Shown piece by piece: positions 1 to 16,333 of a stretch of DNA of 64,000 nucleotides. Numbering within the stretch: the first letter of the stretch is position 1; each line of letters starts with the position of its first letter. The notes below the pieces were generated by a model. It saw nothing but the letters and a program-made list of their open reading frames with translations, was not told the DNA's origin and made no database searches. The stretch lies in NCBI GenBank assembly GCA_019775845.1, contig JADQAV010000020.1:434001-498000 (forward strand), written 5' to 3'. The translations under genes were made by a program, and so were the position numbers. This DNA comes from Myrmaecium sp. VS I D KN 1 (Eukaryota; Ascomycota; Dothideomycetes; Valsariales; Valsariaceae).

Positions 1-1232
1 AAAATCCTAAGTATATAAGCCTTCTCTATAAGGGGTATAGTTTGGTTTATATTAGAGAAGGATAGCTATAAACGCGATAGAGTAGACGAATTTTTAGCCT
101 AGATTAACGGAATATAAGGGTTTTCTATAAGGCCTAAAAGCCCCGATTACTTACTTAATTAATTCCTATTATAGTGCCTAAGGACCCTATATTTAATAGA
201 CTTATATTAAGTCTATTATATAATCTATAGCTATTATAGTATATCGCGGCCTACTTAGTAAGACGCTAGGAGTAAAATCGTCCTATCTTCTCTTATAGGA
301 GACTTAATTATAGTATACCTTTTATAAAATCCCTAGTATCTTAATCTCTTAGTATAGTAATTTATCTAGCGTATTATCTAATTAGGGTAACGCCTAGCTA
401 CTATAAAAACCCCTATTAGGGCTTTACTTATCTTATTAGCAGCTCCTCTTATATTACTTAATAGGCTTAAAGTAAAGATATCGAGCTCCCCTAAAAAGAA
501 CTTATTAGTATTAGTAGTATTAGTGTTAGTTAAGTAACTAGAGTTATTATTTTAAACGATGATAGCCTCCCCATCCTTACCCTTATATAGTAGTATAAAG
601 TTCTTTTTATTATTAAACTATAGGCTGTAGTTATAATTATATACATCGATTATAATTCTACTCCTTCTCTTAAACTATTCCATTATTTTATTTCTATAGA
701 TAAAGCGTTCTATTTCCTCTACTACTTTAGTGGGAGAAACTCTATTTATATATAAATTTATATATCTATTAGATAGATAGACTTACTCTAGATATTAGTA
801 GATACTAGTAAGGCACGCTATATATATTTAGAACATTTATTATTATATATATTAGTCCTCTTCTAAATCCTAGTATTCCTTTATAAATTTAGGCTATAGG
901 TGATATTTTAATAATAATATATAAATAATAAGTACTAAATTAAATTAGTAACTACTAAATTAGTAAACTAGGTCCGCTTACCTCGGGTAATATATTTACG
1001 CGCGGCTTTCTTACCTTCTTAATAGCCTACTAGACTTCTACCTTCTTACTCTCTAGCTTCTCTTTATCCTCTATATTTAGTTAAAGCTCTAAGGCTCGCT
1101 GTTAAAACTAAGGTATTATAATATAGTTATAATACATTAAAACTACTAAATAAAGGCATTATAAGATGCCTGTAATACTAGGAACTGAGGTAAAGAACCA
1201 GCTAATTAAGAATTAAGCGGGGCCTAGAATTA

Positions 1233-1296
1233 GATGATCTAGAATTAACTAAGGCCCAGACTTAGATAATTTAGAATTAACTAAGGCCCAGACTTA
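1233..1296. repeat. 32-bp tandem duplication
   Basis: Two adjacent 32-bp units (1233-1264 and 1265-1296) share the core AATTAACTAAGGCCCAGACT. They differ at two positions near their left ends, one G-to-A and one C-to-T, both RIP-type transitions. A shorter partial copy of the left part precedes them. Confidence 0.75.
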
Positions 1297-2385
1297 AGCT
1301 TAAAAGTAGCTAACTAGTTCCACTAAGTTAATTTCAAATTAATAAAAAACTCTATAAAAAAACTAGAAGCCTAGCTTCTATACTAGGGGCTTAGTATTAC
1401 CGTAAGGAAGGTCTATAAATAAGAAATCTTTTATAATACCTTATATGCTTAGTTAGCTCTACCCTGTTTAACAAAGTATACTAAGATATATTATAAATAA
1501 GAAATAATATACCTTTTTTTTCTTTTATAACTAGCGCTTATGCTACGTTAAATATAAGGCCTATATTTATAATATCTATAATATAGATAAGAGGTATATT
1601 ATAATAGTTAGTTTTATACGTCCTATTAGTTAATAGGAGATTAGGATACTATTTAAGGAATTTAATTAATACTAAATAAGCTTAAAAGAGATAATTAATA
1701 TTATTATTATTATCTTTATCCTATTTAAAAGTATACTAATAATTATATTTTTATTATACTTATAAAGAGCTAGCTATAAGGCCTAAGTTAGTAGTAAGCT
1801 TTTTAAATACTCTACCCTAATCCTTAACACTTTATTATAAATATCCTTCCTGATAAATAACTTACTTAGATCCTATTATTATAGCGCGTCTTAATCTATT
1901 AAGGTTTAACTCTCGCTATAATAAGGCTATATATTAACCTTTTATAATTATCTATAAGCTACCTATAAGTAGGAATAGTAGTCTAAAAAAAGAATAAATA
2001 AATAATTATAATAAGAAATTATAATTTATAGGAACTAGTAAGCCTAGCTACCCTTAAGTTTAATAATAAATTTAATAGTATTTTTAAAGCTATAGTTATA
2101 CTTATATATACTTATTATGTAGTATATAATAACTAAGTTATATATCTTACTCTTACTATAGCCGAAATTAACTTTATTAATAATCCGCTCTAGATATAGT
2201 AAACAGATTCTATAAGCCTCCTTAGCTTATTATTTAGTAGTTTATAGCTAATATAGCTGTTTAAAATAGTTATATAATAGGTATTTATATATAATAGTAT
2301 TTAGTAGGGTGCGCTTATTAAGAAGATTAATTAGATAAGATTACCTATAAATAGTAAAATAGCTCCCTGTAAATAATAATTCTTA

Positions 2386-2472
2386 GTATAATTTACAGGT
2401 ATAGTTATAGTAGTTGCCGGTATAGTTACAGGTATAGTTACAGGCGTAGGCGCAGGCATAGCTGTATAAACA
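2386..2472. repeat. Imperfect 12-bp minisatellite (ACAGGTATAGTT)
   Basis: Several imperfect tandem copies of a 12-bp unit occur here, with variants such as ACAGGCGTAGGC. Read on the minus strand in one frame the tract gives a run rich in Pro, Thr, Val and Ile, so it may be the relic of a low-complexity protein segment of the degraded element. That reading is inference. Confidence 0.55.
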
Positions 2473-2807
2473 GGCGTTAGATATAATAGGTTATAATTAG
2501 CCTACTAGGGATAATAGCTGTTACTAACTTCCTATTAAATAACGCTGCTAGCAGGGAGTTCACTTGCCTATAAGCCGCTATAAGGTATATGTATAACTAT
2601 ATAAAGGTGAAAAGGTTATATAGCTTATTTAAGTCACTTTAGTAATTAAAAGAGGATATTCTATAGGCTCGAGACTAGTCCGCATATTATAGAATTGTTA
2701 CTCGGTGCCCTGCTCTTTTAAGTATGGTAAGGCTACTTTGGAGCGCTTCTATGTATCTTAGTCTACCATCGTCCACGAGAGCCACAGAATAACCCAGAGT
2801 AACATCT

Positions 2808-3862
2808 CTACAAGTTGGTTAAATAGTCCTCTACTTCTTGTGAGCTCAACTTTCTGAAGCGCGGACCTTGAGCGCCTTCCACACCTTCATAACCTAGAAG
2901 GCGATCTTCTGGTGGACCAACAATGCCTTTTTGAGTTAGATTTACAGGTATAGTGAGTATCAAGATCTATATGCGACTCACCAATCTCAACGGTATCTCC
3001 GTTCATCTCTCCTTCTATCGTTTCTTTCAGCGTCAGCAGAGCAATGTGGATTGCATCCTCCAACTCCAAGCCCTCGGTGTATCGCTTTTCGAGGAAAGTC
3101 TTAGCACTTGTCGCACTCTTTCCGATTGCCGTGGCTTTCCAAGGGAAGTAAGAGCCGCTAGGATCGACCTGGTAGAGGCTAGGACCGCCCTTCAGTATTC
3201 CGCCGGTCTTGCCTGATGATCTTTTCTTTTCGGCTTCTGTTTCGCCCGATTCCTTCGCTTCTTGTTCTGGCTCAATACCATCATCCCAACCAGCGATTAA
3301 CAAACTGACACCGTACGGCCTAACTCCACCAGATTGAGTAGCTTCTTGCATCACACGCGCAACATCCTGCACCAATATCCTTGTCGGCGGGTACTCGTTG
3401 TAGATGCGCTTGTATCCGGTATGCGAAACTTTGCGAGCTTTGTCAACCAATACGCGATAGTCAGGACCCATTCCGGAGTACACCATTCCGATGTTGGGTG
3501 TTATTAGGCTGATTTTGGAACCGGAGTTGGCGTCAACGAGGGGGGAGGACAGCTTCTTTTCGGTAGCGAGAACAATGCCATTCGTGGCTAGGACGCAGAA
3601 TTAGCAATCTACCTCAGAGGGTCGCAAGATTCTATACCTTTGATACCGAGGGACGTCACTCCCTGGTTCACTGCGTTAAGAGCATACTCTAGATTGACAT
3701 CAGCATCAGCTCGAACCGGGGTCAGGAGAGACAGTATTCCTAACCAATCTGGACCAATTTCCCACTTTGGCTCTGGGTCAGTAGTAGTTTCTATTTTGAG
3801 GATTTGAAGCTATCTTACCTGGGGGAGAAAGTTGTAAGAGAGAAGGAGTAACGATCTGCCAT
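2808..3862 (-). CDS. pre8: 20S proteasome subunit alpha type-2
   Basis: Alpha-2 subunit of the outer ring of the 20S proteasome core, which gates substrate entry. Five exons join in frame: 3862-3819, 3764-3745, 3688-3638, 3587-2982 and 2926-2808, giving 279 residues. The N-terminus [17 protein letters not shown] leads into the alpha-subunit signature ending [12 protein letters not shown], followed by [12 protein letters not shown] and [13 protein letters not shown]; the C-terminus is [12 protein letters not shown]. Intron 1 ends AAAG, intron 2 starts GTTAGG, and exon 2 is only 20 nt, so automated predictors may miss the start. A charged insertion rich in Glu/Lys follows the GWDDG motif and explains the length above the roughly 250-residue norm. 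The stop lies about 100 bp from the RIP-degraded block. The gene itself looks intact. Confidence 0.95.
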
Positions 3863-5485: not shown

Positions 5486-6072
5486 CTTCTCTCCCTTCGA
5501 TCCGTTTTGCGCATCAGGAGCAAACGAACTTGATTAGGCTTTCCCCGCGCATACTTTGAGTTGCCGTGTGCTTTTCAGTGCCATGTCAATCAGTCATTGC
5601 GCGAAGATTGGACCGCTTGTGGAGAGCACTGCCGAGTTTTTCGAGCGTCTTGTTCGGTTCTCGAGCCTCCCAAGTACCAACCACTTAATACCTGACGCCC
5701 AGCTCTCTACCGCAAGGAATCTACTAAACAAGAGCTGGTTGATGTTGAAGGTGGCACATTATCCGGAATTATGGCATTATTTTTGACTTCTCTAATATTC
5801 AATACCAATCTTATATTCCTCTATTCTGTGCCTGCTGTCCTTGCAAGGTGGGAAGGCACTCTTCCTCAGTCATGCGGGGTTCGGTCCCGCTACTTGCTAA
5901 TCCTACGCTAACTCGCGGAGTACTCGACGAGCCAATACCTACGGTAGCTACATCAGTATTTACAGCTCCATCGCGACTCGGGTAGATGCCATGCAGTGCA
6001 GCTTGGGTTCAATTCGAGAAGACTACTGCATCAACTTCACCTTTGATTTCGTTCTTGGAACTTCCTCGGCTT
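5486..6072. other. Intergenic region, no gene seen
   Basis: Normal base composition. It holds the 3' flank of the RING-CH gene and the former promoter of the broken FAD gene. Short open frames here lack codon or family support. Confidence 0.6.
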
Positions 6073-7319
6073 ATGATGGACACAGCTTACCCTCGAACGC
6101 TAAAACAGCAGACCTACGACGTCATCGTCGTGGGCTCCGGCAACGCTGGCTTCTTCGCCGCAACATCTGCGTCTGAGGCCGGCGCACAGAGTGTACTGGT
6201 TCTTGAGAAAGCGCCCGAAAGCTGGGCGGGCGGAAATACGAAATTTACCGCCGGGGCTTATCGCACTGTCTTCCCGTCCTTGGACGATGTCCTCACACTG
6301 GTCTCTAATGTACCGACTGAGCTGAAGAGGAGGATCGACATGCAGCCTTACTCGGAGCCAGACTTCCTGGATGATCTGGAAAGAGTCACCGGGGGAAGGT
6401 GTGGCAAAGCTCTAGCGAAAGAATTGGCGAAAGACAGCTGGCAGACTACGTGCTAGTTGAAGGAGGCTGTCGGTGTCGACTTCCAGCTCAGTTTCCATCG
6501 GCAAGCTTATGAGATTGAGGGGAGGTGGAAGTTTTGGGGCGGTATGGTCCTGAGCGGTGTTGATGGGGGGAAGGGACTGACGAGGGCGCATAGGAGATGT
6601 TCGTTGGAGAAGGGAATAGAGATGAGATGGCAAAGCGAAGTCGTAGGGTTCCTGAGAATAAATGAGGAGGTAGTTGGAGTCAAGGTGCAGGGGAAGAGAC
6701 GGTCAATGTATGAAGTTTTCGCAAGAGGCGGCGTTGTCTTAGCAGCCGGGGGGTTTGAGGCAAATCCTGCAATGAGGGCACAGTATCTGGGGCCTGGATG
6801 GGATCTGGCTTATGTGAGGGGACGCCTTTCAATACAGGAGAACTCCTGAGGGTCGCAATCGACGAATTGGGAGCCTTGCCGACGGGGAACTGGTCTGGCT
6901 GCCACTCGGCATGCTGGGATGCAATGCGCCAACGGATGCGGGCGATCAGGTCCTCACGAATCAGTATACAAAGAGCGGATATCCTCTTGGTTTGATGCTG
7001 AACGTGAACGGCGAGAGTTCGTCGACGAGGGCTTCGACTTGCGAAATTTTGCATATGCCAAAGTCGGACGGGAGATATTGAAGCAGCCGGAGTGCATGCT
7101 TACAGGTCTGGGATGCCAACGGTGCGTAGTGGTTACGCAACGAAGAGTATGCCCCTGACGTCGTGGAGAGGATCAGTGCAACGTCACTTGAAGAGCTTGC
7201 TGAAAGGCTGCAAGGGAAGGGACTGAAAAACAGATCGGCTTTTCTACAGACTTTACGAGAGTATAACGACGCGGTTAAAGCGCACAGAGAAGAACAGCCC
7301 CAGGCAAAATTCGATCCGT

Positions 7320-7328
7320 CCTTAGAAG
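7320..7328. repeat. Left 9-bp target-site duplication (CCTTAGAAG)
   Basis: CCTTAGAAG at the left edge of the insertion matches CCTTAAAAG at its right edge with one G/A difference. Both copies belong to the coding sequence of the interrupted FAD gene, at the Ser-Leu-Lys codons. Confidence 0.85.
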
Positions 7329-7348
7329 TTATCTTATAAATCAGACGC
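7329..7348 (+). repeat. Left terminal inverted repeat
   Basis: TTATCTTATAAATCAGACGC, the left copy of an imperfect TIR of about 20 bp. It pairs with 15741-15760 on the other strand, with a short gap after TTATCT. Confidence 0.8.
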
Positions 7349-7398
7349 TCGGCACGGAGAGTTAGGGAGTATAGTATTATACCCTAAATAGACCTAGT

Positions 7399-8390
7399 AA
7401 CTCCTAATAACTCCTAGAAACTCCTTAGCTAATAATAAACTATATTATTTAATATATAGACTATATTACTAACTTCTCCGGCGAAGCGTCTAAGAGTAAA
7501 TAATCGCGATTTTATTTATATTTAAATAACTTTATTTTTATTACCTATACTCCTACGCGTTATATATTATATATAATACTCCTCTTATTATAATTATAAA
7601 TATAATTAAATATATAGATTCTAGTCTATTATTCTATCCTATTTTTATACCTATATTAATAGTATTTAGATATAATATATAGCCTTATATCTCCTAACGT
7701 ATTTTTTATACTCTTATAAAATTATTTCCGTTACCGCGCGATCTATAAACCCTCTTAAACTCTTCTAAATCTATAAAAAACCCTAATAAACTACTATTAA
7801 TATATATAGCCTTCTATTATCTAGAAGGATTAAGTATAGTTTATAAATAGTAGTAGCCGGTAGACGGTAGATAGTAGAGGGTTAACTATATATAGTAAAT
7901 AGTATGAAATACTAGGAAATCTATAAATTAATCTATATTACTAGTATTATTAGTAAGACCCCTATTATCTACTTAATTATAGGTCGTTATCCCGGCTAGC
8001 GAACTCCTTTAAACTCCTATATATAATTAAAAGGCCTAATAATAGTAAGTAGCTATCTATACTTAATTAGCTATTATTATAGCTGTTATTATAATTAATA
8101 AAGTCCTATAAACTCCTATAAACTCCTAAGCTAATTAATAATATAATTTTAGTATTATCTAATTATCTCTAAGCCGTTATTAGTTTAGTAGTTAGTAACT
8201 TTTATAAACTCTCGTAGACTCCTATAAACTCTTAGGCTAATATAATCTTAGTATTATTAATTCGTCTCTAAGTAACTATTAATCCGGCGGTTAGTAACTC
8301 CTATAAACCCTAAACAGCTATTAATCTAGTAGTTAATAACTCTTATAAACTCTTATAAACTTCTAAAGACTCCTATAAACTCCTAGGTTA
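7399..8390 (+). repeat. Left subterminal repeat array (AACTCCTA motif)
   Basis: Clusters of AACTCCTA and close variants occur at 7399-7427, 8002-8020, 8102-8130, 8196-8238, 8295-8309 and 8336-8390, often as two or three tandem copies spaced about 10 bp apart. Further copies in the same orientation lie at 11347-11376 and near 11461. Such arrays commonly serve as transposase binding sites in other TIR elements; that role is inferred here. Confidence 0.7.
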
Positions 8391-8599
8391 ATTAAATAGT
8401 TAGACTATTATTTAATAGGTAAACTAAGTAGTATTATAGCTAATAAAAGACGGCCTTTAAGTTATCTATATAGTCCTCTACTTAGCCTCTATAGAGGCTA
8501 CTATAGAGGCTATTATAGAGGCCCTAGAATATATATAACTATATAGCTAGTATCCCTTCTATATCGCTAGTAGATCTCCCTACTATTATTAATAAGATT

Positions 8600-10200
8600 T
8601 AGAAAGAGGAGTATATTAGTTTATAAATACTAGTTCTTATTACCTATCTCTAGTATATTCTATATAAAGGGGATTATTTATTAGCTTATTCCTATAAGGA
8701 ATAGGTCCGTATACTATAATAGTTAATCTTTTATTACTTATACTAGCTTTAGAAAGAGCCTTATCTTCTACGCCGATATTATCCTTATAAAGTAAATTAC
8801 TATCTAGATTATTCTATTTATAAAGTTAGAAGAGGAATAGTTTACTAGTATTTAGAGACTTAATAGCGTCTATTTATACTTTATAGCGGCTAATACTAAG
8901 TAAAGGAAAAGAATATATTTATAAAGATAAAGAATAAAGTATATACTTATATACTCCTTTCGCTAAAATAAGTATTATCTAAGGAATTCTATAATATCCT
9001 TAAGAAAGTAAAGTTCTAGGCGAAGATTAGTTTAGTTATAATTAATAAATATTACTTAATCTTATAATAAAGAGATTTTAGAATAAAGTTTACTATACTA
9101 GGCGAGTTATAACTTATTCTCTATTAGGATATTATATAGTTCGGGTATTTTATAACGCTTAGCGAAGAGGTAGAGAAGCTTATACTTATTAATAGTAGCT
9201 TTTAACTAAATAGTACTTAGATATACTAAATAGAGGTAATTTATATCTTTATTAATCGGCTCGATATCTCCGTCTATATATAACTACTCCTGCGGAAGAA
9301 ACTAAAGTCCTTTAAGGTATTACTATTTATATTAAAGGAGGCCTTCGACGGCTCGTTACGTATAATAACGCCTAGTAATTTACTATATATTATTATCTTT
9401 ATAAATAGTACTATTACAGTTAAAGAGATTATATAGTTCTTCCGAGATATATTTATATCTATTATAAGGGAGTATAAGACCGGCCTTAGATATAGCTTAA
9501 ATATAATAAAGAAGCTCGACGTTTATATTATAGTTAGTACTTTTATTTCATACGTTTCTTAGTATAACTATATATAGTAATATAATAAATTCTAGAAAAG
9601 GGACTCCGCTATCCGGATTATAATAGCGACTATAACCCTCGGTATAGGGATTAATATAATATAGGTAGGACGTATTATTATTTATTAGTTTCTAATAATA
9701 GGTAATCTAGGCGACGCCTAATATTAACTTAGTTAGAGGGAGTAGCTTAAAGGTACTTCTAGCGAGGGCTATATCTTCCTACTATATTATATATTTAACT
9801 TAGAGGGTATAGAAAGACTAAATAGTTAGCTATTACTTCTACTATTATAATAGAGAGCTATATAAAGGAGCTACTATAAGCTACTAGCTAACTACGCTTA
9901 ATATAGCTAGCTATAGAATATAATAACTCTAGAAGACCTTAGCGACTATAGTAATAATAGTAACTACTTTACTATATTAGTATTAAGTAATATACTATAG
10001 AGATATACTATAAGAAGTAGTAAAGAGGAGCTAAGGTACTAGACTAAGTAAGAAAATATTATATATAGTAATATACGTAGTTTATAGAAAGATATTATTA
10101 ATAACTCTTATTATTATAAGGCCTTCCTTTTCTATTTAGAGGAGGATAAGCTACTTACTAATACTAAGGTTACTTAAGTATTACCTAAGCGGTATTATAG
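8600..10200 (+). pseudogene. RecQ/DEAD-type helicase remnant inside the transposon
   Basis: One plus-strand frame, ignoring its many stops, gives helicase-like blocks in the expected order. Around 9026-9063 a KISLVIINKYYLIL-type run sits where a VIDECH (DExH) motif belongs. Around 9611-9664 is IRIIIATITLGIGIN, the ATxxLGxGIN motif of the C-terminal RecA lobe. Around 9760-9800 is EGYIFLPYYIFNLEGIER, as in fungal RecQ-like helicases. These matches come from memory of family motifs and are inference. Walker A is not clearly recoverable. The remnant is too damaged to be functional. Helicases of this type are also known from fungal subtelomeres, so the cargo could have been captured rather than being native to the element. 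Confidence 0.5.
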
Positions 10201-11976
10201 TTATTATAATCTCTCCCTTCTTACTATATTTATCTAGTCTCTATCTATATAGAAGCCCGCCTAGGTACTAAGAGGTAGAAGTTAAGTAAGTATAACTCTA
10301 TATTTATTAGATAAATAGGCGACTAGCTAGGCTAAGGTAGTTTACTATAAAGTTAATTATTACTTTCCTATACTAGCTAGTTTTATAAGTATATATTATC
10401 GCTAGTAACTATCTACGTTATTTACTACTATAAGTAATAGTATTAACTAGGGGTCTACAGCTTTAATAATAGATTCTATCTATAAAGAAGTACTATTATT
10501 TCGAGATTAGACGATGTTTATATAAGATAGTAGTATTCTACTTATATAGTTATAATTTATAGTAGCTAAAGTAGATACTTAATTTAAGATTACTAAAAGA
10601 AGGGCGGTAGAATAGAGGCGTATAATAATAATTATTTAGGATCTAGAAGTATAAGATTAATTTATACTATCTAGTAACCTAGCCGAGAGATATCTAATAG
10701 AAACGCGATAAAGAGATAATATACTTACTATTTAGGTTATAAGAAGGGAAGCTCTAAAGTACTATATTAAGATATAGCTATTATTAGTAATACTAAACGA
10801 GCGCGTTATACGGCTACTATTTATAATACTAAGTAAGCCCGTCCTACTTACTTAAATACCTTATATAATTTAGAAGAGTCCTTATATTAAAGAAGATATA
10901 CTCCGTTCTCTACCCCGGCTAAACTACTCCCCTATCTTAGTAGTAGTTCTAGACTTATAAGCTATCCCTAATATATAGTAGGATATAGTTATTAATATAT
11001 AGGTATCGCCGGATTTATAGTAGGATATTATCGCTAATATATAGATAGATATACGAGGAGCGTTTAGAAATCGGGGATAGTAATATAAAGGCTATACTAG
11101 AAGCGATTACTAAATAGATACCTAGTTAGAAGATAAAGTTTTTATATACTACCTTAAGGAATTAGATATATAGTTAGTAAGATAGTTAGATATCTATTTA
11201 ATAACTATTAGTAGAGAAGAGTAGTAATATAAAGAAGTTAATATTCTTACCGGTTATAAAAAGTAGTTAAATATATATACTAATAGTAAAGGGAAGAGAG
11301 AACTTTAAATATATATAAGTTAGTCTATATATATAAAATATACCTTAACTCCTAGGAACTTTTATAAACTCCTATATTTATTATAATACTATACTCTTTA
11401 GCTACCGTAATATTTAGGTATAATATATATAGGCGACGGAAACTTATATAAATACCTAGTAACTCCTATATTAGTTAGGGCGTAGAGAACTTAATAATTA
11501 AGATAGTTAATATCTTCCTTACTAACTTTATTATTAATATATTCCGCCGAAGCTATCGATCGCTATACCTTTAAGCCGATCCTACTATACTATACTATTA
11601 CCGCTAAATATAGCGTGGTGCTATCTTTTACAGTAGTTAGATACTTAATCCTAGGACCGAGGGCTTACTACTACTTACTAGTTTAGGTAGTAAAGGGTTA
11701 AGGTAGGAATTTATAATATTACTTAAGATTCTATACTATTACCTAAGATCCTATACTATTACCTAAGATCCTATATTATTACTTAAGAACTCTTCCGTTA
11801 ATTATATCGCGGGGATTCGTCCTACTATATTTTATATATTAGTTAGTATATATTAATATAGATATTCTTAACTATAACCGACTAATCTTTCCCGTAATAT
11901 ACTTTCTTTATTTTCTTCTTCTTCTTTATCTTCTTCTTCCTACCCTCCCTACCCTAACTAATAATAATAATAGTAA

Positions 11977-12070
<94 letters not shown>
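11977..12070. repeat. (TAG)n microsatellite, about 31 copies
   Basis: 94 bp of uninterrupted TAG triplets, flanked on both sides by degenerate TAA/TAG triplets that extend the low-complexity zone. Looser TAA/TAG-rich patches recur to about 12,660. It lies inside the transposon. Confidence 0.95.
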
Positions 12071-12071
<1 letters not shown>

Positions 12072-13706
12072 ATAATAATAGTAATAATAGTAATAGTAGT
12101 ATTATATCTAGTTATTCTTTTACTATTAAGTTCTCGCGCGTCCGCCTATTATTACCCTTAATAAACGGGTAATATTAGATATTACTACCCCTCTTACCTG
12201 CGGTACTCTTCGGAGTAAAAGGTAATAAATATATATTATCTTATCTATTCTACTATATAATGTAGTAGTCTAACTAATATTAAATAGTTTATAACCGCCG
12301 CCACTCGCTTCCTTATACTAATAATAGTACTAATAGTAGTAAGAGAAGGAGCTATAATAATAGTAATAATAAGGAGATCTTCTATTACCCCCCGGCCCTA
12401 ATAATAATAATAACGATAACTTCTTATAAGTATATACCTAAGAGGATATTAAGATTATAGGTTACTAACCTATATAATTAGTATAAACTTTCTCCCGCCT
12501 ATCTTATCCCTAGTACCGTCTACTATAAAATAATAATAATAGTAGCTATAGTAGTATTAATAATAGTAGTAGTAGTAATACTAGTAGTATTAATAGTAAT
12601 AGTAGTAAGGTCTCTAGTACCTCCTTCCTTATAATAATAATAACGATAATAATATTCTATAAGTAAGTACTTAAAATAAAAAAAATAAGACTATAAATTA
12701 CTAACCTATATAACTAGCTTCGCGTTTAGCCCTCCCTCCTTATCCTAGCCTCCCTTCCTTCTTATATTACCGCCGCTATTATTACTACTATCCTCCTTAC
12801 TATCGCCCCCTAAGTACTAGTCCTAGCTCTTATAGCTACTCTCTTAATCCTAATAGTTACTAGCCCTACTATTACTATTATAATATAGTAGCTTATTATA
12901 TTTAATATAGTAGATTAGCTGCGCCGCCTTTAGGCGGATTTTTAATTTAAGGCTATAGGGCCCTAACCCCCCTAAATAACTAAGAAGTAGTAGAGCCTTA
13001 ATAATAGATTCCCGGAGGAGTAGAAGGCCTCTAAAGTATAGGACTAGTCCTATATAGAGAGAATTATAAAGACCTTTCTAGGGGAGAAGCTACCTAGTAA
13101 TATAGTATATTTAGAATATTAGTTTAATAGGTTTAAATATTAGACCTATTTAAAAACGGGTATATTATTAGTTTTAAAGGCTAGATTAATATATATTCGG
13201 TACTAGGCTTATATAAAAGCTTATTTAGTCTCTATTTATAAGTAGTAGTTAGATTACTCTCCGCCTCTATATCTCCTCCTAAAAGGGGGAGGAGGTCCTC
13301 CAGGACCTAATACTCCTAGTATTACTATTTAATATAAAGTATATTATAGACTATATATTCTAGTTCTTATATTATAGTCGGGTCTCTAGTTATATTATTC
13401 TTTTAGTATAGTATTATCTATTTAGCTTAGTCCGCCCGGATTCTAGCGGGGTAGTATAGTTTCTATATACTAGATTCTTTCTATAGTTTCTATAATATAG
13501 TCTATATAAATTAGTATAAATATAAGTAATACGTGACCAGAATAATATATTAGTATATTTACTTTATAGTTATTATTATAGTAGTATAAGGATAGTTAAG
13601 AGGAGAGGTCGCTTAAATAATATACGAATAAAATAATCTAAGGGACTAAGTAGGTCCCTATTATACTATAAATATACTAGTAGTATATAATAGATATATT
13701 ATTAGC

Positions 13707-15690
13707 CTAGGAGTTTATAAGAGTTAGAGTTTACGGGGAATATAGATATTATTAGTTATTATATAGTTTAGGAGTTTACTAAAGTTCCCGGGTTTACTAG
13801 AGTTTAGTTATAGTTTCTTACTCCTCCTACCCTCCTCCCTCTTCTTTTTTATTTCCGAGGGGCGGTATTATTCGTATAAGTAAATATATCTTAAAGAAAG
13901 GACTTAGAATTAGTAGTATATCTACTAAGAAGTATTTAGTAATAATTACTAATAAATAGGATTATTAGTTAATTTTCCTATCTTTAAGAGCCTATTTAAG
14001 GTATCTATTAGTAGCTTAGTAAATAACCTACTCTAGAGACCTATATATAATTAGTAATTTCTTAATATCTTAATTACGCGGGTTTATATTAATTAAGCAG
14101 CGTAGAGCTTTAATAGCTCTAAATTCTCTACTATATATTATATTAATAGAGGTAGATAGAGCGACGCTTCTATCTATTCTATAGGTTAATCTACTTAGGG
14201 TCGTAGTTATAAATAAGACGACGGTCCCCTTAAGGGGAAGAGTAAGATAACGGTCCTCTTAAGGGATATCCTTAAAGTTAATATTATTATAGATAACTAC
14301 CGCTTATAAATCCCTTACTAGAACCTGAAGATATCTTTATTAAGGCCGACTTAATTATATTAGTTAAGTATATTAATTAGCTTAGGAGTTTATAGAAGTT
14401 AATAGGAGTTAATAGGAGTTATTAGAAGGGTAAGTAATATAAGTAATAAGAAATAGAAAGGGGAGAATAAATATAATATAATTAATTAGTAAGTTTATAG
14501 AAGTTAGTAGGAGTTAGTAGGATATTTTAAAGGTAAATATAATATAGGGTATTAGAGTAGTATAAGGCTATAAAGGGGAATATATCGACTTAAGAGTTAA
14601 TAGGAGTTTAAAAGGCGAGAGAGATATAATTACTAGTTATATACTTTAATATTCTTCGCGATATCCGCTATTAATTAGTTAGCTTAGTAATAGCTATAAT
14701 ATAAACTAAGGCTAGAAAGGACTTTAATAACTTAACGTTTTATACTTAACCTAATAAAATAAGTATTAAGTATAGAGGTAAGATAATTTAACTTCTTTTT
14801 TATATAAGAGAAGTATAGTATAGAGATAATTATATATAGCTGTTTCTCTAATATAGTTAAAACTAAGCCTTAATATATAGCTTAATATATCCGCTAGTTC
14901 CTAAGGAGGCCTATTAAGACCTTATAAAGTATAGGTATAATACTTCTTATTATCTTAAATATAGCTATAAAGTCTATTCTTTCTATATTAATATAATAGT
15001 TAAATTTATTAAAGAAGGGCTATTAGATTAAGTTATTAAGCTCGTCCGTAAGAACCTTAATAAAGGTTAGAGTATTAACGTAAAGATAACGAAGGCGGCG
15101 ATTATTACTTAGAACTATCTTTAGAATATATTACTATTATATAGGTATATAGTATAAATAATATAAATAATACTAGATTATAATATTTTATTATTATATA
15201 ATAGTGCGCGCGCTAACTCCTACCTAAGCCTTAATAAACTACTTAAACGACTATTAAACTTATTATATTATATTAATAATTACTTAGAGCTTCTTAGCGG
15301 ATATAGAGCGTCTACCCTAAGTATTCTATATATTCTAATTAGGTATATTAGGTATTAGGGTATTAGTAAATAATAATAAATAGTTAAGTAATAGAGATAA
15401 GAATGTAGGTAATAAAATAAATAGTATAGATATTATAATAGACTTTATATTTAATAAATTATATATAGTAAAAGAAGTACTTTTAAATAAGCCTAGTTTA
15501 AAATAGATAAGTAACAGGAGTAAAAGAAAAGTATAACGGTAAATAATATAATAATAGATTATATAGAGATAATATTAGAGTAGTATATAAATTAATTATT
15601 TACCCTTAAATACTCTACTAGGAATTAGTCTATAGTTACTATAATTAGCTTAGGAATTTCTAAAGGTTATTAGGAGTTACTAGGAGTTTA
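13707..15690 (-). repeat. Right subterminal repeat array (TAGGAGTT motif)
   Basis: The inverse complement of the left motif, TAGGAGTT, is found at 13707-13726, 13768-13785, 14383-14424, 14491-14520, 14595-14610 and 15651-15690. The switch of orientation between the two halves mirrors the terminal inverted repeats and supports one element, or two nested related ones. Confidence 0.7.
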
Positions 15691-15740
15691 AGATAGTCCT
15701 AATTAGGTATAGCTCGAGTAGCGCTAATTCCCGCTAGGGA

Positions 15741-15760
15741 GTCTGATTTACCTGAGATAA
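15741..15760 (-). repeat. Right terminal inverted repeat
   Basis: Reads TTATCTCAGGTAAATCAGAC on the minus strand and matches the left end apart from the short gap after TTATCT. Confidence 0.8.
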
Positions 15761-15769
15761 CCTTAAAAG
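15761..15769. repeat. Right 9-bp target-site duplication (CCTTAAAAG)
   Basis: Right-hand copy of the target duplication. It is followed directly by ATGGATTATCAACC, which resumes the FAD gene in frame. Confidence 0.85.
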
Positions 15770-16333
15770 ATGGATTATCAACCAGGTCGAGCAAAAGCGG
15801 ATTAGCTTTGGACAAGACAAACGGGGCGATGCCGGTTGTGGAACCGCCATTTCTCGCCGTGAAGGTGACCTGCGGCATCACTTTCACGTTCGGCGGGCTG
15901 AAGATAGACCCAAAGTCCGCGCAGGTTATTTCTACGATGGAGGAGCCGATTGCAGGTTTGTATTGTGCTGGAGAAATGGTCGGCGGTTTATTCTATGAGA
16001 ATTATCCTGGAGGGAGCGGGCTCACTTCTGGTGCAGTATTCGGACGAAAGGCCGGGTGGAATGCTGCTTTAGCAGCATAGCAAACATAGGTGATGGAGAG
16101 GAAAAACTTGCGAAGGCAGTAACAATCAAGCAGCCCCCTTTTTGCCCGCTTGCCAGTCGTGCCAGTTTATGGCGATGATAAGGTCGACCTCCGCGACATG
16201 CAATAGGGGATAGGGCATCGTGTCTTGGCACTTTACGCGAAGGCGCGAGGCGCGTCTTCTTCGAGAGACTTTCCGTATCGTTCGGCATCCAACATCACAT
16301 TCACCTCCTGTCTCCCAAGATACCTATAGTGAA

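What the first reader, a model, noticed from the sequence alone, without database searches (positions are those of the whole stretch)
8600..10200. RecQ/DEAD-like helicase fossil carried by the TIR element
Helicase-like blocks survive in order on the plus strand, notably IRIIIATITLGIGIN near 9611-9664 and a DExH-position block near 9026-9063. A helicase inside a TIR-bounded element with a 9-bp duplication is not part of the classical fungal DNA transposon families I know. It could represent a poorly described large-transposon lineage, or capture of a subtelomeric-type helicase.
Basis: inference. Interest (0 to 1): 0.8.

Follow-up and report, generated by a model that had tools for sequence, protein, structure and literature searches.

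The report
RIP-ruined helicase-carrying fungal DNA transposon
A dead fungal jumping gene, wrecked by the fungus's own mutation defence, still shows a RecQ-type DNA helicase inside it and best fits AcademH, a known group of helicase-carrying transposons, although its transposase could not be found.

Summary
Window 7329-15760 is a RIP-saturated DNA transposon with short inverted ends (TTATCT...AAATCAGAC) and a 9-bp target duplication. On its + strand lies a decayed RecQ-family helicase: motif I region 8742-8945, motifs II-V 8957-9688, patchy coding signal to about 11080. A RIP-tolerant profile scan scores z about 8 here and 10 in a second copy; DEAD-box and reversed-profile controls stay at background. 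Three elements with these ends were found: this one, a 12.9-kb RIPed copy, and a 275-bp derivative without RIP bias. Both helicase copies found lie inside these ends. Inverted AACTCCTA arrays may be transposase-binding sites. This copy splits an FAD-oxidoreductase gene whose frame continues across the empty site.

Helicase plus 9-bp duplication is not undescribed: AcademH encodes a helicase and makes 9-10 bp duplications (citing papers; the original is not held). MULE relics here have other ends. Neither copy is near a contig end, so a subtelomeric helicase is not supported. No transposase was recognised: perhaps a helicase-only AcademH derivative, but the test is weak, since the same genome-wide family searches also miss this helicase. 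Low to moderate interest.

The parts
7320..7328 (.). left copy of the 9-bp target site duplication, CCTTAGAAG
   Evidence: partner CCTTAAAAG, one mismatch
7329..7346 (+). left terminal inverted repeat TTATCTTATAAATCAGAC, the 18-bp type of end, also present at one end of each of the other two elements
7399..8385 (+). left subterminal array: 7 AACTCCTA words
   Evidence: 20 words of both orientations in the element against a Markov mean of 1.09, max 5 of 200 simulations; 0 in 48 kb of host
8742..8945 (+). RecQ helicase, motif I region (RecQ columns 45-116), in another frame than the rest
   Evidence: weak alone (z 2.6, below its shuffle maximum); supported by the second copy, where columns 13-177 lie in one frame at z about 10; small indels between the copies at 8730 and 8897
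8957..9688 (+). RecQ helicase, motifs II to V (columns 130-325); motif II at 9026-9064, motif V at 9611-9655
9689..11080 (+). rest of the coding-like region: end of the helicase and a C-terminal extension of about 400 residues of unknown identity; periodicity is near background at about 9450-10200
   Evidence: 3-base periodicity z 3.7 at 9954-10454 and 8.1 at 10454-10954; no credible family hit
11347..11468 (+). three further AACTCCTA words after the coding-like region
11482..11698 (.). stretch absent from the second copy but 85% like C10:1294043-1294259: probable small nested repeat
11960..12100 (.). TAG-type microsatellite (approximate limits)
   Evidence: causes the strong periodicity there
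13708..15688 (-). right subterminal array: 9 TAGGAGTT words, the reverse complement of the left word
   Evidence: one AACTCCTA word at 15215 lies among them
15741..15760 (-). right terminal inverted repeat TTATCTCAGGTAAATCAGAC (read on the - strand), the 20-bp type of end
15761..15769 (.). right copy of the target site duplication, CCTTAAAAG

Best explanation
A low-copy cut-and-paste-type DNA transposon of the AcademH kind, inactivated by RIP. Shown: three elements share ends, inverted arrays of a subterminal word and target duplications compatible with 9 bp; the two long ones carry the same RecQ-family helicase, the only coding region I could name. Inferred: a DDE-type transposase, supplied in trans by a lost full element or hidden in the unidentified C-terminal extension, bound the ends and the AACTCCTA arrays, cut the target with a 9-bp stagger and inserted the element, while the RecQ helicase unwound or remodelled DNA at the ends during excision, strand transfer or gap repair. 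The long copies were then mutated by RIP; the 275-bp derivative shows no RIP bias.
For: 9-bp duplication: perfect at the 275-bp element, one mismatch here, 8 bp plus a junction T at the second copy. RecQ helicase in both long copies at z 7.7 and 9.8, with controls at background. Both helicase copies found in the genome are inside these ends. Inverted word arrays at the two sides. Insertion into an FAD_binding_2 gene whose frame continues across the empty site. Published AcademH features: helicase, 9 or 10 bp duplication, low copy in Ascomycota among others (passages).
Against: No transposase family was hit: this copy in six frames outside the helicase and the helicase region in part of its frames, the second copy at C2:646100-654676 in six frames and its helicase region in + frames. 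No Academ model or sequence was at hand, and the defining paper is not held, so the ends and protein order of AcademH could not be compared. The family searches are insensitive in RIPed DNA: PF00270 and TIGR00614 miss this very helicase. A periodic stretch at C2:651562-652062 (z 4.7) is unassigned.
Confidence: 0.66

Rival explanations
1. A non-autonomous Mutator-like (MULE) element that captured a helicase and is moved by MULE transposase; MULEs also make about 9-bp duplications.
For: RIPed MULE relics exist in this genome (5 matches to PF10551), one with a 9-bp duplication CTCCACAAG. MuDR-like fungal elements without transposase that carry another protein and have 9-bp duplications are on record (PMC3627910, passage).
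Against: The MULE relics for which ends could be found (3 of 5 loci) have other ends: GGGAGAGACTAACG, GGTTTTACTAAAAA, and CGGACTTGC/GGGACTTGC. PF10551 is detected through RIP in 5 places at E 1.4e-10 to 7e-7 but not in either helicase element; this is weak evidence, because PF00270 and TIGR00614 likewise miss the RIPed helicase. The AACTCCTA/TAGGAGTT word occurs 0 or 1 time per MULE block, 5 of 5 blocks.
Confidence: 0.14
2. A telomere-linked RecQ helicase gene of the host (TLH type) was captured by an otherwise unrelated TIR element.
For: Fungal telomere-linked RecQ genes can be repeated and low in G+C (PMC4522978, passages); TLHs sit at chromosome ends of Fusarium oxysporum (PMC12857005, passages). 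No transposase was recognised in the copies.
Against: The copies lie about 364 kb and 96 kb from the nearest contig end; neither contig is among those with a four-unit telomere repeat. Only 2 of 21 RecQ-family matches pass the cut-off in the genome, at C29:610968 and C11:66575, and no OrsD domain is found; RIPed copies would be missed by these searches. AcademH explains helicase and duplication length together.
Confidence: 0.1
3. [quoted passage not shown]
For: RecQ helicase, reported only from fungi (PMC9587614, passage).
Against: Kolobok makes 4-bp TTAA duplications (same passage); here they are about 9 bp and not TTAA.
Confidence: 0.02
4. No helicase: AT-rich RIP debris that looks like motifs by chance.
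For: Plain profile hits are below their cut-offs or absent.
Against: The main segments exceed 60 of 60 shuffles in both copies, are collinear and RecQ-specific. Five other RIPed blocks, 30 frames in all, give z <= 3.2.
Confidence: 0.02

Closest known systems
AcademH (helicase lineage of the Academ superfamily; Kojima 2020, paper not held and not seen, known here through passages of citing papers)
   Same: helicase inside a DNA transposon; 9-bp target duplication (9 or 10 bp reported); low copy; fungi
   Different: no transposase recognised in either long copy; terminal sequences and domain order could not be compared
KolobokH
   Same: RecQ helicase in a fungal DNA transposon
   Different: 4-bp TTAA duplication; here about 9 bp
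Mutator-like elements (MULE/MuDR)
   Same: 9-bp duplication, TIRs; present in this genome
   Different: other ends, no MULE domain found, different internal words
Telomere-linked RecQ helicases (TLH)
   Same: RecQ-like fungal helicase, repeated, in one report low in G+C
   Different: those sit at chromosome ends; these copies are internal to their contigs and bounded by TIRs and duplications

Membership tests
AcademH | 9- or 10-bp target site duplication | tested here: met
   perfect 9 bp at C13, 9 bp with one mismatch here, 8 bp plus a junction T at C2: 3 of 3 elements compatible with 9
AcademH | encodes a superfamily II (RecQ-like) helicase | tested here: met
   2 of 2 long copies; the 275-bp derivative is too short to hold one
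AcademH | encodes an Academ DDD/E transposase | tested here: inconclusive
   no transposase family among hits, but no Academ model or sequence was available and RIP lowers sensitivity
AcademH | terminal sequence and helicase phylogeny of the lineage | not testable with these tools
   defining paper not held; no fungal AcademH sequences held
AcademH | low copy number in fungi (reported, not strictly defining) | tested here: met
   2 long copies and 1 short derivative found in 25.66 Mb
MULE | MULE transposase domain | tested here: inconclusive
   PF10551 finds 5 RIPed relics elsewhere and none in the element, but comparable searches also miss the element's helicase
MULE | about 9-bp target duplication | tested here: met
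KolobokH | TTAA target duplication | tested here: not met
   CCTTAGAAG, CCTTCGGT(T), CGCTGTCGT
Telomere-linked helicase | position at a chromosome end | tested here: not met
   about 364 kb and 96 kb from the nearest contig ends, no four-unit telomere repeat on C11 or C2; contigs may not be whole chromosomes

The most novel reading that the evidence does not exclude
A helicase-only TIR transposon lineage distinct from AcademH, in which one RecQ protein of roughly 900 residues with an unrecognised catalytic C-terminal extension carries out transposition with a 9-bp stagger, without a known DDE transposase.
Probability: 0.1. Interest if true: 0.65.

Novelty: new member of a known kind. Interest (0 to 1): 0.33.

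Why it matters
It adds a probable AcademH family, with a 275-bp derivative that shows no RIP bias and so preserves the ends, in a RIP-active fungus where such elements are nearly unreadable. The ends and the AACTCCTA arrays give a handle for finding intact relatives and for asking what transposon helicases do. The RIP-tolerant scan shows that saturated fossils can still be typed, with controls.

Tried and rejected
Plain profile searches of masked or read-through frames gave no or sub-threshold helicase hits, and genome-wide PF00270 and TIGR00614 searches did not list the element; kept as negative results. Stop-codon depletion by frame was not informative. Three-base periodicity was: 5 of 5 RIPed MULE relics have a window of z 4.2 or more at or near the MULE domain. 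It also gave signals that I do not explain by the helicase: z 3.3 at window 13829-14329, z 4.7 at C2:651562-652062, and up to 6.5 at C2:652437-653062, the last inside the nested repeat.

A search with the C2-only stretch showed that its right part (L015 3590-5295) matches a repeat family at many other places, probably a nested insertion, so I did not count it as part of the element; its left part carries the element's TAGGAGTT words. Phage collection: no match. Hits such as New_glue (5e-6), TFIIA (2.8e-4, 7.2e-4), OATP (9.3e-4), DUF2162 (0.0017) and P34-Arc (0.021), all under their cut-offs, were taken as composition artefacts; the RNaseH-like terminase hit at E=0.18 was not used. The global alignment misplaces the last kilobase (blastn gives 87% there; the alignment gives 51%), so the substitution rates contain mispaired columns. 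Background in the RIP-tolerant scans reached z 3.5 (W, single copy, another frame) and 3.2 (a MULE block); I count z below 4 as background. The MULE end search gave convincing ends at 3 of 5 loci; at one of these, L053, the duplication is an ambiguous TA run. The literature search for Academ with RecQ was swamped by the word 'academic' and says nothing either way.

On checking I noted that family searches miss the RIPed helicase too, so a missing MULE domain weighs less; I moved AcademH from 0.68 to 0.66 and MULE from 0.12 to 0.14, and ran to cover frames of this copy not scanned before.

Full report
What is there. The window is G000:C11:434001-498000 of a 25.66-Mb, 66-contig genome. Window 7329-15760 (8432 bp) is a block of mostly 26-31% G+C beside host DNA of about 50%. 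(CA+TG)/(AC+GT) is 0.037 in it against 1.22 in 10 kb of neighbouring host DNA: RIP to saturation. Its ends are TTATCTTATAAATCAGAC and, inverted, TTATCTCAGGTAAATCAGAC, flanked by CCTTAGAAG and CCTTAAAAG.

Copies. A pattern search of the whole genome for the 20-bp type of end with up to 2 mismatches gave 7 places; 3 have no mismatch and belong to elements. They are this one; C2:641812-654676 (12,865 bp, RIP index 0.044), whose flanks share CCTTCGGT and a junction T; and C13:377163-377437, a 275-bp element with a perfect CGCTGTCGT duplication and no RIP bias (index 0.94). Each of the 3 elements has one 18-bp and one 20-bp type of end. More diverged copies could have been missed. The helicase region has 2 DNA matches in the genome, both in these elements, and a protein search adds no other place; a search with the whole element adds end, microsatellite and short other matches.

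The helicase. Conventional searches are weak or negative. I therefore scored each codon against a RecQ profile (2 host RecQ proteins, 6 IMG/VR RecQ loci) while allowing for RIP, and compared with codon-shuffled versions. Window 8957-9688 scores 26.4 (60 shuffles: mean 13.9, sd 1.6, max 20.1). The upstream piece 8742-8945 scores 18.9 in another frame (z 2.6, shuffle max 19.1), which alone is not significant. In the C2 copy one frame covers columns 13-177 at 35.1 (60 shuffles: mean 15.2, sd 1.9, max 21.5), including a motif I block and the DExH block. Rerun with controls: RecQ z 7.7 and 9.8; Sgs1 alone 6.6 and 3.6; four DEAD-box proteins -1.3 to 1.2; an RFC-like protein 1.6 and -0.2; a non-helicase part of Sgs1 -0.4 and -0.5; reversed RecQ 0.4 and -0.4; 30 frames of five other RIPed blocks at most 3.2. 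With AAT and AAG read as D and E, recQ_fam is the one NCBIfam hit (E=1.8e-4). So the fossil is RecQ-family, not DEAD-box.

Extent. Three-base periodicity is patchy but marks 8330-11080 in this copy (z 3.1 at 8329-8829, up to 5.9 at 8954-9829, 3.7 at 9954-10454, up to 8.1 at 10454-11079; near background at about 9450-10200) and the matching region of C2 (z up to 6.4), besides trinucleotide repeats. Other signals: z 3.3 at 13829-14329 here, 4.7 at C2:651562-652062 (unassigned) and up to 6.5 at C2:652437-653062 (in the nested repeat). The test finds the coding part in 5 of 5 RIPed MULE relics. Within 8330-11080 the copies differ by 5 indel events, 1.8 per kb, against 2.0 upstream and 3.7-3.8 downstream. 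Identity between copies is no higher there (87.0%) than upstream (88.0%), so nothing here shows selection on the protein. About 400 residues after the helicase remain unidentified.

Cis architecture. AACTCCTA occurs 11 times and TAGGAGTT 9 times in this copy; 10 of 11 lie in the left half and 9 of 9 in the right half. In C2 the figures are 8 of 9 and 10 of 12. There are 0 in 48 kb of host DNA and 0 or 1 in each of five MULE blocks; a Markov model of the element gives 1.09 on average, at most 5 in 200 runs. The 275-bp element keeps 3 AACTCCT and 2 AGGAGTT words. That such inverted arrays are transposase-binding regions is inference.

Insertion site. The left flank encodes the start of an FAD_binding_2 protein (E=6.2e-8, profile 1-45) and the right flank its end (E=9.5e-10, profile 346-411); the piece between, 6461-7327 in one frame, gave no family. 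Read with one copy of the duplication, the frame continues from ...FDPSLE to DGLSTR...; the same frame has two stops further upstream on the left, perhaps introns. The element therefore appears to have inserted into a gene with 9 duplicated bases.

What it is. AcademH encodes a helicase and generates 9 or 10 bp duplications, AcademX 3 or 4 bp (PMC10045372, passages). AcademH is described as low-copy in Basidiomycota, Ascomycota and Mucoromycota, and the same paper names DEAD and Helicase_C among domains of AcademH, KolobokH or Helitron taken together (PMC10799480, passages). RecQ helicase in Academ is mentioned in PMC3627910 (passages). The original AcademH paper is not held and was not seen. 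KolobokH also has a RecQ helicase, but Kolobok makes TTAA duplications (PMC9587614, passages). MULEs are present as relics with different ends (3 of 5 loci) and a domain detected through RIP; it is not detected in this element, though such searches also miss the helicase. The copies are not near contig ends, no OrsD domain is found, and 2 of 21 RecQ-family matches in the genome pass the cut-off, so a telomere-linked helicase is not supported.

What is missing. No transposase family was hit in either copy. That leaves three possibilities: helicase-only, non-autonomous AcademH derivatives; an Academ transposase in the C-terminal extension (or in the unassigned stretch of C2) that I could not recognise for want of a model; or, least likely, a lineage of its own. 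I rate AcademH kinship at 0.66.

Noticed in passing
window 5986-7328 and 15769-16080: An FAD_binding_2-type oxidoreductase gene is split by the element; its frame continues across the empty site.
   Followed up: partly
C13:377163-377437 (L005 1501-1775): 275-bp derivative with both ends and a perfect 9-bp duplication, without RIP bias.
   Followed up: yes
window 11482-11698: Stretch absent from the second copy and 85% like C10:1294043-1294259; probable small nested repeat.
   Followed up: no
C2:651990-653695 (L015 3590-5295): Repeat family with many genome copies, apparently nested in the second element; its last part matches C3:6420-6941.
   Followed up: no
C2:651562-652062: Stretch with 3-base periodicity (z 4.7) between the element's word array and the nested repeat; not identified.
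   Followed up: partly
L051 1690-6155 (C23): RIPed MULE of about 4.47 kb with ends GGGAGAGACTAACGAGCAC and 9-bp duplication CTCCACAAG; MULE relics with other ends at L053 and L054.
   Followed up: partly
window 1-2900: Another AT-rich block (G+C 27-33%) at the start of the window, without the AACTCCTA word.
   Followed up: no
C2:650452-650655: 204-bp stretch that matches its own reverse complement at 84%, a large imperfect palindrome.
   Followed up: no
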